A DNA stretch of 64,000 nucleotides from Curtobacterium flaccumfaciens (GTDB lineage Bacteria; Actinomycetota; Actinomycetes; Actinomycetales; Microbacteriaceae), in contig CP121450.1 in the NCBI GenBank assembly GCA_029689965.1, forward strand, positions 2,232,001 to 2,296,000, written 5' to 3'. Under the pieces are notes generated by a model. That model ran no database searches, was not told where the DNA came from, and worked only from the letters and a program-made list of their open reading frames with translations. Positions 31,852-39,906 of this stretch are shown here, in pieces. Every line of letters starts with the position of its first letter. Positions within the stretch are counted from its first letter, which is position 1. Both the position numbers and the translations under genes were made by a program.

Positions 31852-34597
31852 TCAGCTCTCGCCGCCCGCGCTGCCCGTGGTGCCGGCGGTCACGTCGTGC
31901 AGGCGGTACTTGTCGATCGCCTGCTGGACGAGCGCGCCGTCGACCTTGCCCTGGCGTGCCAGCTGCTGCAGCGTCCGCACGACGACCGACGGGCCGTCGA
32001 TGTGGAAGAAGCGGCGGGCCGCCGGACGGGTGTCCGAGAAACCGAAGCCGTCGGCGCCGAGGGTGGCGTAGTCGGTCGGGACGAACGGGCGGATCTGCTC
32101 CTGGACCTGGTGCATGAAGTCGCTCACGGCGACGACCGGGCCCTCGGTGCCGAGGAGGCGCTCGGTGACGTACGGCGTGCGCGGTGCCTCGTTCGGGTTG
32201 AGGAACGCGTGCTGCTCCGCGTCGAGTCCGTCGCGGTACAGCTTACCCCAGCTCGTGACGCTCCAGACGTCCGCCGACACGCCCCAGTCCTCGGCGAGGA
32301 GCTGCTGCGCCTCGAGGATCCACGGCACGGCGACGCCCGACGCGAGCAGCTGGGCCTTGGGGCCGTCGTGCTCGCTCGGCTTGAGCAGGTACATGCCCTT
32401 GACGATGCCCTCGGCGTCGACGCCCTCGGGCTCGGCCGGCTGGACGAGCGGCTCGTTGTAGACCGTCAGGTAGTACATGACGTTCGGGTCGGCGTGCTTC
32501 GCGGAGCCGTCCTCGTTCGTGCCGTACATCCGCTCGAGGCCGGCCTGCACGATGTGGCCGATCTCGTAGCCGTAGGCGGGGTCGTACGACACCACGGCCG
32601 GGTTCGTCGCCGCGAGGAGCAGCGAGTGGCCGTCGGCGTGCTGCAGGCCCTCGCCCGTGAGCGTCGTGCGACCTGCGGTGGCACCGATCATGAAGCCACG
32701 GGTCATCTGGTCGCCGGCGGCCCAGATGGCGTCGCCGGTGCGCTGGAAGCCGAACTGCGAGTAGAAGACGTACACCGGGATGAGCGGCTCGCCCTGCGTC
32801 GAGTACGAGGTGCCGACCGCGGTGAACGCCGCGAGGGCGCCCGCCTCGTTGATGCCGACGTGGATGATCTGGCCCTGCGGGCTCTCCTTGTAGGCCAGGA
32901 GGAGCTCGCGGTCGACCGACGTGTAGTGCTGGCCGTTCGGGTTGTAGATCTTCGCGGTCGGGAAGTACGCGTCCATCCCGAACGTGCGCGCCTCGTCCGG
33001 GATGATCGGGACGACGCGGTCGCCGAAGTCGGGGGAGCGGAGCAGGTCCTTCAGCAGACGGGCGAACGCCATCGTCGTGGCGACCTCCTGCTTGCCGGAG
33101 CCCTTCTTGACGACCTGGTACTTCGAGTCGTCCGGCAGCGTGAACTGCGTGTACTTCGTCCGGCGCTCCGGCACGTACCCGCCGAGCTCGCGACGGCGCT
33201 CGTGCATGTACTGGATCGCCTCGTCGTCGTTCCCGGGGTGGTAGTACGGCGGCGTGTAGGGGTTCTCCTCCAGCTGCGCGTCGGAGATCGGGATGCGCAT
33301 CTCGTCGCGGAACTGCTTGAGGTTGTCGAGCGTGAGCTTCTTCATCTGGTGGGTCGCGTTGCGTCCCTCGAAGCTCGGGCCGAGGCCGTAGCCCTTGACC
33401 GTCTTCGCGAGGATGACGGTGGGCTGGCCCTTGTGCTCGGTCGCGGCCTTGAACGCGGCGTAGACCTTGCGGTAGTCGTGCCCGCCGCGCTTGAGGTTCC
33501 AGATCTGGTCGTCCGAGTAGTCCTTGACCAGCTTCGAGCGCCTTCGGGTCGCGCCCGAAGAAGTTCTCTCGGACGTACGCGCCGTTCTCGGCCTTGTACG
33601 TCTGGTAGTCGCCGTCGGGCGTCTGGTTCATCAGGTTGAGGAGCGCGCCCTCGGTGTCGCGGGTGAGCAGGTCGTCCCACTCACGGCCCCAGACGACCTT
33701 GATGACGTTCCAGCCCGCACCGCGGAAGAACGCCTCGAGCTCCTGGATGATCTTGCCGTTGCCGCGGACCGGGCCGTCGAGCCGCTGCAGGTTGCAGTTG
33801 ATCACGAAGTTCAGGTTGTCGAGCCCGTCGTTCGCGGCGACCTGCAGCTGTCCGCGGGACTCGACCTCGTCCATCTCGCCGTCGCCGAGGAACGCCCAGA
33901 CCTGCTGGTCGGAGGCGTCCTTGATGCCGCGGTTCGAGAGGTACTTGGCCTGCTGCGCCTGGTAGATCGCGTTGATCGGGCCGATGCCCATCGACACGGT
34001 CGGGAACTGCCAGAAGTGCGGCATGAGGCGCGGGTGCGGGTACGACGAGAGCCCGCCGCCGGCGTGCGACTTCTCCTGACGGAAGCCGTCGAGCTGGTCC
34101 TCGCTGAGGCGGCCCTCCATGAACGCGCGGGCGTACATGCCCGGCGAGGCGTGACCCTGGAAGAAGACCTGGTCGCCGCCGGACGGGTGGTCCTGCGCAC
34201 GGAAGAAGTGGTTGTAGCCGACCTCGTACATGGCGGCGCTCGAGGCGTAGGTCGAGATGTGTCCGCCGACGGCGATGCCGGGGCGCTGCGCGCGGTGCAC
34301 CGTGATCGCGGCGTTCCACCGGATCCACCGGCGGTAGCGGCGCTCGAGCTCCTCGTCGCCCGGGAACTCGGGCTCGTTCTCCGGCGCGATGGTGTTGACG
34401 TAGTCCGTGGTCGGGACCATCGGCACACCGAGGTGCAGTTCCTTGGACCGCTTGAGCAGGCTCAGCATGATCTCTCGGCCGCGCTGGTGGCCGTGGGTCT
34501 GCACCAGACCGTCGAGGGACTCACGCCACTCGGCGGTCTCCTCCGGGTCCTGGTCGTTGCTGCCGTGGCTGTACGGGTCCTGGTCGTTCACCGTCAC
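31852..34597 (-). CDS. aceE: Pyruvate dehydrogenase E1 component (homodimeric), one frameshift
   Basis: Thiamine-diphosphate enzyme feeding acetyl-CoA into the TCA cycle and fatty-acid synthesis. N-terminus [26 protein letters not shown] motif [24 protein letters not shown] (GDG…N); [14 protein letters not shown]. The frame breaks at about 33534 with an extra A in CTCGAAGCTGGTC (CTCGAGCTGGTC restores [14 protein letters not shown]). About 915 residues, normal. GTG at 34597 or 34591; the latter is better placed after AAGGGTG. It ends 34 bases before the fasR start, so readthrough into the fab cluster is possible. Confidence 0.95.
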
Positions 34598-35402: not shown

Positions 35403-36989
35403 TCAGGCGTGCACCGGGAAGGTCGCGGCGACGCGTGAGCGGACCTCGGCGAGCACCGCTGCTCGCATGACGGGTGAGAACAGCGAGTGGTCGCCGTCGG
35501 GTACCCGCACGACGTCGACGCTCCCCGTCCGCCCGCCCACGGGCCAGCGGCGTACGGCCCGCCGGCCGCCCAGCCGGTCGAAGAAGCTCGACGTCCGCCG
35601 GGGACGCGATCACGACGACGTCGGTGCCCTGTTCCACGAGCGGCCGCAGGTGCGTCACCACGCCGCCGACGCGGTCCCGTCGCGCGACCCGCTCCCGCAC
35701 GCCCTTCGGCACCGCACGGTTCCACCAGCCGCGGACGCGCAGACGCAGCGCCGAGGGCTCGTCGATCGCACGGAGGGCATCGGCGTAGGCGCCCGCCGCC
35801 GCCGCCACGCGACGGTAGTCGTTCGGGCTGATCTCGACGACGAGGCGCGGTGCCACGTCCGCCGATCGTCCGGCGAGCCACGCCCCGGCGCACATGCCGA
35901 CGAGGACCAGCCGGTCCGGTGGCACGCCCAGAGCGCCGACGACCGCGCTCTGGTCGTCGACCCAGTCCTGCGTGAACATCGGCGACCGCTCGTCCTCGTG
36001 GACCGTGGAGCTCTCGCCCGTGCCGCGTCGATCGACGCGGACCACCCGGGCGCCGTCGCGCGCGAGGCCGCGGGCGAGGGCGACCTGGTAGTCGGCGGCC
36101 CCGACGCGGTGCTCGGCGGCACCGTTGTGCAGCACGACGACCGGCGCGTCCTCGGTCTGCCCGGACGCGACGGTCTCGATCGCGAAGAGCTTGTCCGGAC
36201 CGAGCCGGACGATGCGCTCGGACACGCGGCTGTCGACGTCGAGCACCTCGGTCAGGCGGGGTGGCACGGTGGGCCGCGCGATCGCCGGCGCCCAGTCGTC
36301 GACCCAGGCCACGACCGCGTCCATCGCGGTTCCCGGGATCCGGGCGACCATGCTCGTGCCGTCGAGGAGCTCGGCGCCCCCGGCACCTCGAGCGTCGGGA
36401 CCGGCCCGAGCGCCCCGGGCGCAGCGGTTCCGGGACGCACGAGGGCGACGGTCGGGCCGCCGCGCGGTGCGTGGGTCAACGCGGACAGCGCGGCGGCTTC
36501 GGCCGGCTCGACGTCGATGCCGACGAGGCTCTCGACGTCGCCGAGCACGCGCTCGTGCCCGATGCTGATCGTCGCGAGCGCACGTTGCTTCCGGAGCCAG
36601 GCGCGACCGGATGCCGGAGCGTCCCACAGCACGAGTCCGTCCCCGTCCTCGGCCGCTGCACCGGCGACCAGGGCGGCCGACGCGAGGCCGACGAACGCGA
36701 CGCGGTCGACCCCGGTCGACCGCAGCAGCGCTGCGGCCCGCCGTGCCGAACCCACCTGCGCGTCCGGGTCGGTGTCGGGCGCGGCGTCTCCACGTCCGGA
36801 CGGGTCGTAGCGGACCGAGGCCACGCCACGCGCCTCCAGGCGGTCTGCCAGCAGGCGGAGCGTGCGGTACGCGATCACGCCCTCCTGCCCGAGCGGCGGA
36901 CAGATCACGACGCCCGCCCGCGCGGCGGCGGGGAGCTGGACCGCGACGCGCAGGGCGGGGTGCCCCGACCAGCCGTGGAGCGTGGTCAC
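35403..36989 (-). CDS. Large alpha/beta hydrolase protein of the carrier-protein cluster, two frameshifts
   Basis: About 528 residues. The N-terminal half resembles a serine hydrolase lacking a confident nucleophile (VVICPPLGQEGVIAYRTLRLLADRL, YDPSGRGDAAPD, AFVGLASAALVAG). The C-terminal half is a second alpha/beta-hydrolase domain (VVVLHNGAAEHRVG, RVDRRGTGES, VLVGMCAGAWLAGRSA with Cys at the GxCxG nucleophile elbow, and late His in VPDGDHSLFS). Breaks: about 36378 (one G short) and 35584 (an extra base in GAAGAAGCTC). GTG overlaps the ligase stop. It is likely a thioesterase or acyltransferase acting on the carrier-bound product; this is inferred from context. Confidence 0.75.
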
Positions 36990-37952
36990 AGCGCCAGGGC
37001 CCCGCGGACCGGCGCCGGCCAGGCGTCCGGGTCCGTCCCGTGCGCTGCGAACAGGGCGATCGTGACTCGCTCCAGGCCGAAGGCGACGCAGGCGCTGTGC
37101 GCGACCTCGCCGTCGGCGGTACGGATGGCGAACGACGTGCCGAAGTGGTCCTCGTGCAGGTTCGCGGACCCGATCGCGGTCCACGGGTGGTCGTGGCCGT
37201 ACACGGGTGTGACGAACTCGAACTTGAGCGCCTGGTCGACCTGGTTCCGGGCGAGCATCTGCCCGACGCGTCCGAAGAACGGGTCGTTCGCCGGCACGAC
37301 GTCGATCTCGAGGCCGAACGACTCGAGCAGCGCACGCATACCGGGGATCCGGCCGTCACGGTGCTGCCTCGCCGACTGGGGGTGCCGACGTGCACGAACT
37401 CGTGCATGTGGAACGCCTGCAGCCGCATCGGATCGAGGGACGGTTCGCGGCGGAAGGAGTCGCCGAGGACGTCGAACGTGCGTCCGCCGGCCGGGAGCGT
37501 CCCGGACAGCAGGCCGTACAAGGGATGGCAGACCGCCGGCGTGAGCATCAGGTCCGCGGGCTCGAGGAACGACTCCCAGCGTTCGCCGCGCTCCCGGGCC
37601 GCGAGCAGCGCCCGATGGGTCCGGTCGTCGCCGGTGAAGCCCGAGATCGACGCCGCGAGGTCGGGGAAGGACGCGATGTAGTCGGTGCGCTCGAAGGCCG
37701 TCAGCGGCTCCACGGGCGGAACCGGAGGACCTCGGCGTCGAGGTCCGCGTGGATCCGCACCTCGGCGGCGTCGACGGCGGCGTACACCCGCTCGAAGACG
37801 CCGGTCCGGCCGTACAACCCGGGGGAGCCGAGGTCGACGAGGACACCGTCGGTGAGCAGGCGTGCGCGGAGGTCCGCGCGGGCCGCGTCGAGACCGGTGG
37901 CGGCTGTCACTGCGGCGGTCGGTTCGGCGGCGGTCGGTTCGGTGACGGTCAC
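36986..37952 (-). CDS. Amino acid--[carrier protein] ligase (class II aaRS-like), two frameshifts
   Basis: Homologue of the atypical seryl-tRNA-synthetase catalytic core that loads an amino acid onto a carrier-protein phosphopantetheine instead of tRNA. Restored length is about 322 residues. Candidate zinc ligands Cys~140 (TPAVCHPLYGLL), Glu~183 (FHMHEFVHVGTP) and Cys~287 (HSACVAFGLERVTIALF) have the Cys-Glu-Cys order and spacing of characterised Bradyrhizobium ligases; motif 3 is GLERV. Breaks at about 37717 (FRP/PVEPL) and 37380 (VGTP/QSARQH) are single C losses. No tRNA-binding domain. GTGA overlaps on both sides tie it to the ACAD-like and hydrolase genes. Usual cognates are Gly or Ala; unknown here. 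Confidence 0.85.
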
Positions 37953-39163
37953 AGGATCGCTCCGGTCATGAGGGCCATCCCGGCGTCGTTCTGGAGGAGA
38001 CGGTCGTTGCTCACCATGACGGCGGCGCCGTGCGCGTCCCGGAGGTGCCGGGCGATGCTGAGCGGTCCGGTGGCGGCGAACCCGGCGATGCCGACGATCC
38101 GCAGCGCCTTCGTGACGAGGTCGGTGACCCGCTCGGAGGCGCCGATCTTCAGGGCGTTCGCGGCGAGGGCGTACGCGGTCGACTCGAGGACCTCGGCGTC
38201 GTCCGCGACGGCGTCGAACCGCGCGGCCGCGTGGCGGACGGCGTCGGCGAGCGCCTGCAGGTCGACGAGGAGCTCGGCGAGCCGGAGTGCTCCCGGCGGG
38301 GTCTGCCCGACCGTGGCACGGGCCTGCTTCCGGACGGCCCGTCGCGCGCGGTCGGCGGCGTCCGTCGCGATGCCGAGCCACACGGACGCCCAGAGGACGT
38401 GCGAGACGGGGAGGACCGTCCGGGCGGAGATCGCCGCGTAGTCGTCGCGGAGGATCCGGTCCTCGTGGGTCTCGGCGTCGAGCACCCAGCCGTTGCTGCA
38501 GGTGCCGCGGAGCCCGAGGGTGTCCCACGTCGAGGTCTGGGTCAGGGTGGTCTCGGCGGGCAGGCAGATGACGAGCCGCTGGTCGGAGGGTGCGGCGTCC
38601 GGGTCGCGCCGGGCGGTGACGAACACCGCGTCGGCCTCGGTCGCGTACGAGATGACCGGTGCGTCCTTGCGGAGCCGGATGCGCCCGGCCGGTCCGACCT
38701 CGATGGCGCACGTGCTGCGTCGGGCGTCTCCGCCGATGCCCCGCTCGGTGGTGGAGGACGCGACGAGCGCCCCTGCCTTCACCGCCTCGATCGTCTCGGT
38801 GACACCGATGGCCACGCCGCCGTGCCGCCACAGCGCCATCGCCTGCCCGTGGTGCATCGCGAAGACCATCGCCGTCGCCGCGCAGGCACGGCCGAGTTCG
38901 GTCGCGATGACGGAGAGCTCCGCGAGGGACGCGCCCTCGCCGCCGAGCTCGGTCGGGACCGCGGCAGCCAGGAGCCCGTGCTCCTTCATCGCGGCGATCG
39001 CCTCGCGCGGGGGTCGGGCGTCACGGTCGACCTCGTCGGCGAACCGCGCGGCGACGTCCGCGACGAGTGCGGTGCGGGCCGCGAACCGTCCGGACGCCGG
39101 GACGCCGGGCGTGTCCGCGACGGTGTCCGCGGGCGCCGGCGCGGTCCGCTCGTCCGTGATCAC
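37949..39163 (-). CDS. Acyl-CoA dehydrogenase-like flavoprotein
   Basis: 404 residues, frame intact, ACAD fold: N-terminal helices (PREAIAAMKEHGLLAAAVPTELGGEGASLAEL), middle beta domain, C-terminal helical domain (KALRIVGIAGFAATGPLSIARHLRDAHGAAVMVSNDRLL). The usual C-terminal catalytic Glu in a YEGT-type segment is absent; MVSNDRLL stands in its place, so it may oxidise an aminoacyl or acyl thioester by another base, or act as a monooxygenase. GTG start overlaps the carrier-protein stop. ACAD-like partners oxidise carrier-bound prolyl groups in pyrrole biosynthesis, a useful precedent. Confidence 0.85.
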   Translation of the reverse strand: MITDERTAPAPADTVADTPGVPASGRFAARTALVADVAARFADEVDRDARPPREAIAAMKEHGLLAAAVPTELGGEGASLAELSVIATELGRACAATAMVFAMHHGQAMALWRHGGVAIGVTETIEAVKAGALVASSTTERGIGGDARRSTCAIEVGPAGRIRLRKDAPVISYATEADAVFVTARRDPDAAPSDQRLVICLPAETTLTQTSTWDTLGLRGTCSNGWVLDAETHEDRILRDDYAAISARTVLPVSHVLWASVWLGIATDAADRARRAVRKQARATVGQTPPGALRLAELLVDLQALADAVRHAAARFDAVADDAEVLESTAYALAANALKIGASERVTDLVTKALRIVGIAGFAATGPLSIARHLRDAHGAAVMVSNDRLLQNDAGMALMTGAIL

Positions 39164-39447
39164 GAGGCCGTCTCCGCCGCTGCCGCGATCGACTCGATCG
39201 TCGCGAACGTCGACCGGTGCAGCACCGCGTCGGGGAACTCGACGTCGAGTTCGTTCTCGACCGCGAGCATCACGTTGACCGTGGCGTGGGAGGTCAGTCC
39301 GAGGGTGTAGAGGTCGGCGATCGATGCCACGTCCATGGCGTCGACGGAGAGGCGCCCGTGGTCGGCGAGTGCCCGCCGGACGGCCTGCTCGGTCGTCGGG
39401 GTAGCGAGGGCGACGGAGGTCGCCGCGGTGATCGGGTCCTGGTGCAT
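39160..39447 (-). CDS. Atypical acyl carrier protein of the ligase cluster
   Basis: 95 residues. The phosphopantetheine Ser is residue 53 in LYTLGLTSHATVNVMLAVENEL; GLTS replaces the DSL motif of AcpP, as in carrier proteins paired with amino acid:CP ligases. It is clearly distinct from the fatty-acid acpP at 28178. ATG at 39447. Coupled by GTGA to the ACAD-like gene. Confidence 0.88.
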   Translation of the reverse strand: MHQDPITAATSVALATPTTEQAVRRALADHGRLSVDAMDVASIADLYTLGLTSHATVNVMLAVENELDVEFPDAVLHRSTFATIESIAAAAETAS

Positions 39448-39529
39448 GCTCGCAACCATAAGGAAGAGCACGGGCCGGAAAACCGCTGTGTGGCTGCGCG
39501 AAACCGCATGGGGTCCCGAGCGCGGCGGG

Positions 39530-39906
39530 TCAGCGCTCGGTGAGCGCCACGGCCGTCGCGATCGCGAGCCCACGCTCGTGCGACAGCGAGACGGCGATCG
39601 TGTCGCAGCCGATCGCGCCCGCGAGCTCCGCCGCACGTCCGGTCAGCTCGACGACCGGGGCTCCGGCGTCGTCGTGCACGACGGCCACGTCGGTCAGCGG
39701 GATCGCCTCGGAACGCTCCGGCCGGAGCAGCTTCAGCACGGCCTCCTTGCCGGCGAAGCGCGCGGTGAGACGCTCGGGTCGTCGCCGGTGTCGGCCCGTT
39801 CGCGCGGGGTGAACACGCGGGACAGGTACCGTTCGCCGTGCGCGGTGATCCCGGCGACGACGTCCTCGACGGCCGCGAGGTCGGTGCCGGTCCGGATGGT
39901 GGCCAT
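39530..39906 (-). CDS. acpS: Holo-[acyl carrier protein] synthase, one frameshift
   Basis: 4'-phosphopantetheinyl transferase, about 126 residues. GTDLAAVEDVVAGI at the N-terminus has the metal-binding Asp, FTPRERAD follows, and ARFAGKEAVLKLL supplies the Glu-Lys pair. A missing G at about 39776 (CCCGAGCG for CCCGGAGCG) splits it. It lies 82 bases upstream of the carrier-protein gene on the same strand, so it probably activates that protein. It may also be the housekeeping enzyme, as no other copy is in view. Confidence 0.9.

What the first reader, a model, noticed from the sequence alone, without database searches (positions are those of the whole stretch)
35403..39906. Dedicated amino acid:carrier-protein pathway in one coupled operon
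Five minus-strand genes in order: holo-ACP synthase, atypical carrier protein (Ser in GLTSHATV), ACAD-like flavoprotein lacking the usual catalytic Glu, aaRS-like amino acid:CP ligase with Cys-Glu-Cys zinc-ligand spacing, and a two-domain alpha/beta hydrolase. The last four are linked by GTGA stop-start overlaps. Amino acid:CP ligases are known to charge carrier proteins with small amino acids, but their physiological product is not known to me. Here the set suggests: pantetheinylate, load the amino acid, oxidise or modify it, release or transfer it. The oxidation step parallels PltE-type oxidation of prolyl carriers.
Basis: partly seen in the sequence, partly recalled or inferred. Interest (0 to 1): 0.85.

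Follow-up and report, generated by a model that had tools for sequence, protein, structure and literature searches.

The report
Operon loading amino acids on carrier
Five neighbouring genes look like a small assembly line that attaches an amino acid to a carrier protein, oxidises it and passes it on; relatives of the same set occur in several bacterial phyla, often beside genes for cell-surface sugars, which gives a test of what these long-mysterious amino acid:carrier-protein ligases are for.

Summary
Window 35403-39906 (-) encodes AcpS, carrier protein (CP), ACAD-fold flavoprotein, synthetase-like amino acid:CP ligase and a two-domain alpha/beta hydrolase; GTGA overlaps join the last four. 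AcpS, ligase and hydrolase are frame-broken here, as is aceE, so assembly error is likely. The genus is Curtobacterium: the ligase passes its family cut-off in 48 of 66 genus genomes; CP, flavoprotein, ligase and hydrolase follow each other in 48 of 49 other positives. The CP-flavoprotein-ligase core recurs in several phyla, with this hydrolase and/or DUF1839 plus GH2. The hydrolase's second domain has a Cys nucleophile in 70 of 70 aligned sequences, while its first mostly lacks a nucleophile: this favours acyl transfer. The flavoprotein lacks both usual catalytic Glu, and its nearest solved relatives include a flavin monooxygenase: PltE-type desaturation is not supported. Elsewhere the ligase lies near exopolysaccharide priming genes more often than chance (15 of 34 picked genomes within 30 kb, 1.24 expected). 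In Curtobacterium the acceptor is unknown. No activity is shown.

The parts
39530..39906 (-). acpS, holo-ACP synthase (frame change near 39775 in this assembly)
   Evidence: Two pieces match AcpS models and an intact genus relative at 82-83%
39160..39447 (-). carrier protein; pantetheine serine in GLTSHATV; open frame
   Evidence: NF005480 86.7 bits over cut-off 72; Ser invariant in 104 of 104 aligned relatives
37949..39163 (-). ACAD-fold flavoprotein without either usual catalytic Glu; open frame
   Evidence: Pfam ACAD N and C domains; model pLDDT 91.9; alignment with other ACADs
36986..37952 (-). aminoacyl-tRNA-synthetase-like amino acid:carrier-protein ligase (three frame pieces in this assembly)
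   Evidence: NF005479 and PDB 4h2w/3mey matches for the pieces; Cys, Glu and Cys all present in the pieces
35403..36989 (-). two-domain alpha/beta hydrolase: first domain with GLASA, second domain with Cys nucleophile (GMCAG) and Asp-His pair (three frame pieces in this assembly)
   Evidence: model of the Leaf183 relative
39160..39163 (-). GTGA overlap, CP stop / ACAD start
37949..37952 (-). GTGA overlap, ACAD stop / ligase start
36986..36989 (-). GTGA overlap, ligase stop / hydrolase start

Best explanation
A tRNA-free, NRPS-free aminoacyl assembly line. AcpS adds phosphopantetheine to the dedicated CP (inferred from family). The ligase activates a small amino acid (glycine or alanine in the studied Bradyrhizobium relative, recalled) with ATP and loads it on the CP thiol (family strongly supported; activity inferred). 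The ACAD-fold flavoprotein oxidises the CP-bound aminoacyl group, by dehydrogenation with a different base or by flavin-dependent oxygenation, perhaps on nitrogen (inferred; kind of oxidation open). The two-domain hydrolase takes the acyl group onto its second-domain cysteine and passes it to an acceptor, like the aminoacyl shuttles CmaE and SyrC; its first domain is a mostly nucleophile-less partner (inferred from residues). In a good part of the other genera the acceptor is probably an exopolysaccharide or its precursor; in Curtobacterium it is unknown.
For: CP, ACAD, ligase and hydrolase in the same order and strand in 48 of 49 other genus positives, acpS before them in 47 of these; none of the five genes at 11 of 12 ligase-negative sites read; median dN/dS 0.21-0.34 for the five genes. 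CP-ACAD-ligase adjacent on one strand in 56 of 79 relatives; of 58 with at least 7 kb of DNA on both sides, CP in 57, ACAD in 54, hydrolase or DUF1839 in 54. Ligase Cys/Glu/Cys 116/116, CP Ser 104/104, hydrolase Cys 70/70, His 70/70, Asp 69/70, first-domain nucleophile position Arg 51, Ala 13, Gly 3, Ser 3 (up to 12 of the 70 hydrolases are Curtobacterium). Exosortase-A hydrolase 1 relatives also have Cys there (7 of 7 read: six over the TIGR03100 cut-off, one just under), and two of these loci (L215, L217) hold a small gene that I read as a carrier protein. Ligase within 30 kb of an EPS priming glycosyltransferase in 15 of 34 genomes, 1.24 expected. In Bradyrhizobium a table of phaR-mutant changes lists bll0957 (the ligase) and bll0958 (acd) next to each other, each with FC 3.0 (PMC10888616, one passage).
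Against: No substrate, activity or product is shown. No glycan gene was recognised next to the Curtobacterium operon (not every neighbour was searched by family), and in the one Curtobacterium genome tested the priming genes lie on another contig (G879). In 19 of 34 genomes no priming gene lies within 30 kb: 11 have none on the ligase contig, 8 only farther off. ACAD is missing in 4 of 58 well-flanked relatives and in the Tsukamurella plasmid stretch, so oxidation is not obligatory for the wider system. L100, L111, L117 and L133 have neither hydrolase nor DUF1839. A Cys nucleophile does not exclude hydrolysis. The 79 relatives are the best 80 of 575 matches to a query led by a sequence of this type, so co-occurrence may be inflated.
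Confidence: 0.5

Rival explanations
1. The hydrolase is a thioesterase: the pathway makes a free oxidised amino acid or a small released metabolite (for example a signal or siderophore part), with no glycan role.
For: The Curtobacterium operon stands beside aceE and a peroxiredoxin, with no recognised glycan gene; fold matches of the hydrolase model are mostly esterases, lipases and peptidases.
Against: Cys instead of Ser nucleophile in 70 of 70; the hydrolase relative on the Tsukamurella plasmid lies among glycosyltransferase genes and the ligase is often near EPS priming genes.
Confidence: 0.25
2. The flavoprotein is a dehydrogenase giving an alpha,beta-unsaturated or imino-acyl carrier, like BolQ or ColB1 (this narrows the best explanation rather than opposing it).
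Against: Glu absent at both usual places; top phmmer matches are 5gj7 and 5z8t, the latter titled flavin-containing monooxygenase, with DnmZ and KijD3 in the first nine.
Confidence: 0.4
3. The operon is decayed and non-functional in this organism.
For: Three of five genes are frame-broken in the window.
Against: aceE is broken as well and the assembly rates 65.5% complete; ligase over cut-off in 48 of 66 genus genomes; low dN/dS in the relatives.
Confidence: 0.05
4. The ligase is a tRNA synthetase paralogue acting in translation.
For: Match of the C-terminal piece to archaeal-type SerRS (1.1e-11).
Against: Much better match to the amino acid:CP ligase (1.4e-33); genus relatives are 307-336 aa against 527 aa of the SerRS chain; a CP gene in 57 of 58 well-flanked relatives.
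Confidence: 0.03

Closest known systems
Amino acid:[carrier protein] ligases (Bll0957 of Bradyrhizobium; PDB 3mey, 4h2w)
   Same: Class II synthetase core, Cys/Glu/Cys positions, separate small CP gene; bll0958 (acd) is listed beside bll0957 in a table
   Different: Here set in one short operon with AcpS and a Cys hydrolase; DUF1839 and GH2 of many relatives were not detected. PMC9437257 (passages) says the biological role remains unknown
CmaE / SyrC aminoacyl shuttles
   Same: Alpha/beta hydrolase with Cys nucleophile (recalled for CmaE/SyrC); PMC8748450 passages describe CmaE moving an aminoacyl group between carriers
   Different: Here two domains, the first mostly lacking a nucleophile; no NRPS domain found among the five genes; sequence homology to CmaE/SyrC not tested
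Exosortase-A-associated hydrolase 1 and 2 (TIGR03100, TIGR03101)
   Same: Both window halves hit these models weakly; hydrolase 1 has a Cys nucleophile in 7 of 7 read; one fused 620-aa frame has Arg then Cys like this family
   Different: Scores far below curated cut-offs (35.4 v 168.45 and 29.0 v 202.75); exosortase genes were not looked for here
PltE/RedW prolyl-PCP dehydrogenase; ColB1; BolQ
   Same: ACAD-like flavoproteins acting on carrier-bound amino acids (PltE/RedW recalled; ColB1 and BolQ)
   Different: Window protein lacks both Glu positions; RedW model 19.7 bits against 650
KijD3 / DnmZ flavin N-oxygenases
   Same: ACAD fold, 24% identity over 362-366 aligned residues to KijD3; both among the first nine phmmer rows
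   Different: KijD3 is crystallised with a nucleotide amino sugar (entry title), not a carrier-bound amino acid; the similarity is distant
DltC/DltA D-alanylation
   Same: Carrier-bound amino acid destined for a cell-surface polymer (recalled); CP hits DltC models weakly
   Different: Different ligase fold (recalled); DltB/DltD not sought

Membership tests
Amino acid:[carrier protein] ligase (NF005479) | Sequence over the curated family cut-off | tested here: met
   Met by genus relatives (48 of 66 genomes); the window's own pieces score 45.5, 137.2, 158.2 apart, each under 357
Amino acid:[carrier protein] ligase (NF005479) | Cys/Glu/Cys zinc ligands | tested here: met
   Present in window pieces; invariant in 116 of 116; that these are the metal ligands is recalled
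Amino acid:[carrier protein] ligase (NF005479) | No tRNA-binding domain | tested here: met
   Genus relatives 307-336 aa, matching the catalytic part only; not testable on the broken window gene itself
Amino acid:[carrier protein] ligase (NF005479) | Charges a CP, not tRNA | not testable with these tools
   needs enzyme assay
Acyl-CoA dehydrogenase (dehydrogenating) | ACAD fold | tested here: met
Acyl-CoA dehydrogenase (dehydrogenating) | Catalytic Glu at either of the two known positions (positions recalled) | tested here: not met
   Ser/Ala/Thr in 19 and Arg in 1 of 20 rows at the first, Val/Ile at the second (3 of 12 reference frames were wrongly picked and dropped)
Prolyl-PCP dehydrogenase (RedW/PltE) | Over NCBIfam NF045652 cut-off | tested here: not met
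   19.7 bits against 650
CmaE/SyrC-type aminoacyltransferase | Alpha/beta hydrolase fold with Cys nucleophile | tested here: met
   Cys in 70 of 70, His 70 of 70; model pLDDT 91.5
CmaE/SyrC-type aminoacyltransferase | Sequence homology to CmaE or SyrC | not tested
   their sequences were not fetched
Exosortase-A hydrolase 1 | Over TIGR03100 cut-off | tested here: not met
   35.4 bits for a window piece against 168.45
NRPS | AMP-binding and condensation domains | tested here: not met
   No such Pfam hit in nine pieces of the five genes; the last stretch of the hydrolase, 35403-35604, was not in that call

The most novel reading that the evidence does not exclude
A cross-phylum, tRNA- and NRPS-independent route that makes oxidised (possibly N-oxygenated) amino acid thioesters and hands them, through a Cys alpha/beta hydrolase or the papain-like DUF1839, to cell-surface glycans or their precursors, with Curtobacterium keeping a five-gene minimal form. 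This would answer what amino acid:CP ligases are for.
Probability: 0.3. Interest if true: 0.82.

Novelty: new variant of a known kind. Interest (0 to 1): 0.63.

Why it matters
Amino acid:CP ligases have had solved structures for over a decade (recalled), yet a 2022 review still calls their role unknown (PMC9437257, passages). A recurring partner set (CP, odd flavoprotein, Cys acyltransferase-like protein, DUF1839, GH2) and an EPS link give a direct, cheap test in soil bacteria such as Azospirillum. If right, it adds a new way of putting amino-acid-derived groups on bacterial surfaces or small molecules.

Tried and rejected

Limits: the EPS test used 34 genomes, being 34 of 35 isolates that I picked from the 79 loci (L131 not held); they are partly related, so the tail value 1e-13 is nominal. 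Length filters dropped short sequences before the residue counts (kept: HYD 70, ACAD 91, LIG 116, CP 104). Gene presence means a profile hit anywhere in the locus on either strand.
Full report
What is there. The minus strand of window 35403-39906 carries acpS, a carrier protein (CP), an ACAD-fold flavoprotein, an amino acid:CP ligase and a two-domain alpha/beta hydrolase. CP/ACAD, ACAD/ligase and ligase/hydrolase each share GTGA. CP scores 86.7 bits on NF005480 (cut-off 72); the flavoprotein passes Pfam ACAD N and C cut-offs; ligase pieces match NF005479 and PDB 4h2w/3mey. AcpS, ligase and hydrolase are split between frames in this assembly. aceE, the gene at 31855-34597 (914 aa in the relative used; named from recall, its family was not searched), is split too, and the genome is rated 65.5% complete, so I read the breaks as assembly errors.

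Genus and linkage. Locus L149 is titled Curtobacterium sp. Leaf183; its genome G879 has the ligase at the same contig coordinates as same-genus genome G024, so the genus is Curtobacterium. The ligase is found in 50 of 66 genus genomes including the window's (48 over cut-off). I read the surroundings in all 49 positives other than the window. In 48 of them CP, ACAD, ligase and hydrolase follow each other on one strand; acpS precedes in 47 of these, in two overlapping pieces in L175 (in L154 the contig starts at CP). The 49th (G014, L047) has the parts in broken or partial frames. In 36 of the 38 loci the aceE gene is close by; L154 is too short and L185 shows none of the usual flanking genes. 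Of 16 genomes without a ligase match, two of them under 80% complete, 15 lack the hydrolase too. Of 12 such sites read, 11 hold none of the five genes; G039 keeps the hydrolase alone. DUF1839 and GH2 were not detected in the 49 genus stretches. Median dN/dS of the five genes is 0.21-0.34. The unit mostly comes and goes as a block.

Beyond the genus. It is rare in sampled relatives: 9 of 395 other genomes in the order sample (none over the cut-off) and 9 of 395 others in the phylum sample have any ligase match. A scan of genome contigs found 575 relatives, of which the best 80 (79 loci, L072-L150) were kept. Among the 79: CP 76, ACAD 70, DUF1839 55, hydrolase 52, GH2 49, AcpS 34; CP-ACAD-ligase adjacent on one strand in 56; the five-gene order acpS-CP-ACAD-ligase-hydrolase on one strand in 8 (L097, L110, L122, L131, L137, L138, L141, L149). 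Of the 58 with at least 7 kb on both sides, 54 have hydrolase or DUF1839; L100, L111, L117 and L133 have neither. Loci with CP, ACAD and ligase bear titles such as Nocardioides, Azospirillum, Thiomonas, Verrucomicrobiaceae, Pirellula, Gemmatimonadetes and Myxococcales. The set is biased towards relatives of the query.

Glycan link. [quoted passage not shown] In the Tsukamurella plasmid L067 ligase, CP, PPTase and hydrolase lie among glycosyltransferases and a polyprenyl glycosylphosphotransferase, without ACAD in the stretch. By my own reading of representative sequences (no family search), GT4-like glycosyltransferases recur in 17 and a priming transferase in 8 of the 84 loci clustered. In 34 genomes the ligase lies within 30 kb of a PF02397 gene in 15 (1.24 expected), within 20 kb in 11 (0.83), within 10 kb in 6 (0.41); 8 have one only farther off on the same contig and 11 none on it. 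The Curtobacterium genome in that set is among the 11. So the glycan acceptor is a proposal for other genera and only a possibility here.

Verdict. The best reading is load, oxidise, transfer; loading is well supported by family, the other two steps by residues and context only. The pathway looks like a new variant of a known kind. Interest 0.63.

Noticed in passing
window 31855-34597: aceE is split between two frames near 33533, like three of the five operon genes; the assembly seems error-prone.
   Followed up: partly
L189 6101-7681: One Curtobacterium genome (G039) keeps only the hydrolase, next to the aldo-keto reductase, with acpS, CP, ACAD and ligase not detected there.
   Followed up: partly
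L072, L049-L051: Arsenicicoccus and an unnamed genus of the order carry two ligase-CP pairs about 10 kb apart: one with AcpS, one with ACAD, DUF1839 and GH2.
   Followed up: partly
L213-L219: Exosortase-A-associated hydrolase 1 has a Cys nucleophile (GxCD), 7 of 7 read, though named hydrolase; L219 is a fusion with Arg in the first domain.
   Followed up: partly
L120, L128: MAG records titled Klebsiella pneumoniae carry the CP-ACAD-ligase-DUF1839-GH2 set with a hydrolase upstream, like the deltaproteobacterial MAG L108; probably mislabelled.
   Followed up: no
L069 14024-15885: Two genes annotated as tail fiber protein lie just behind the Azospirillum operon.
   Followed up: no
L053-L056: Distant ligase relatives (91-138 bits) in the order sit among other genes without the partner set; 82-aa genes of carrier-protein size stand beside two of them; possibly other carrier-protein pathways.
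   Followed up: no
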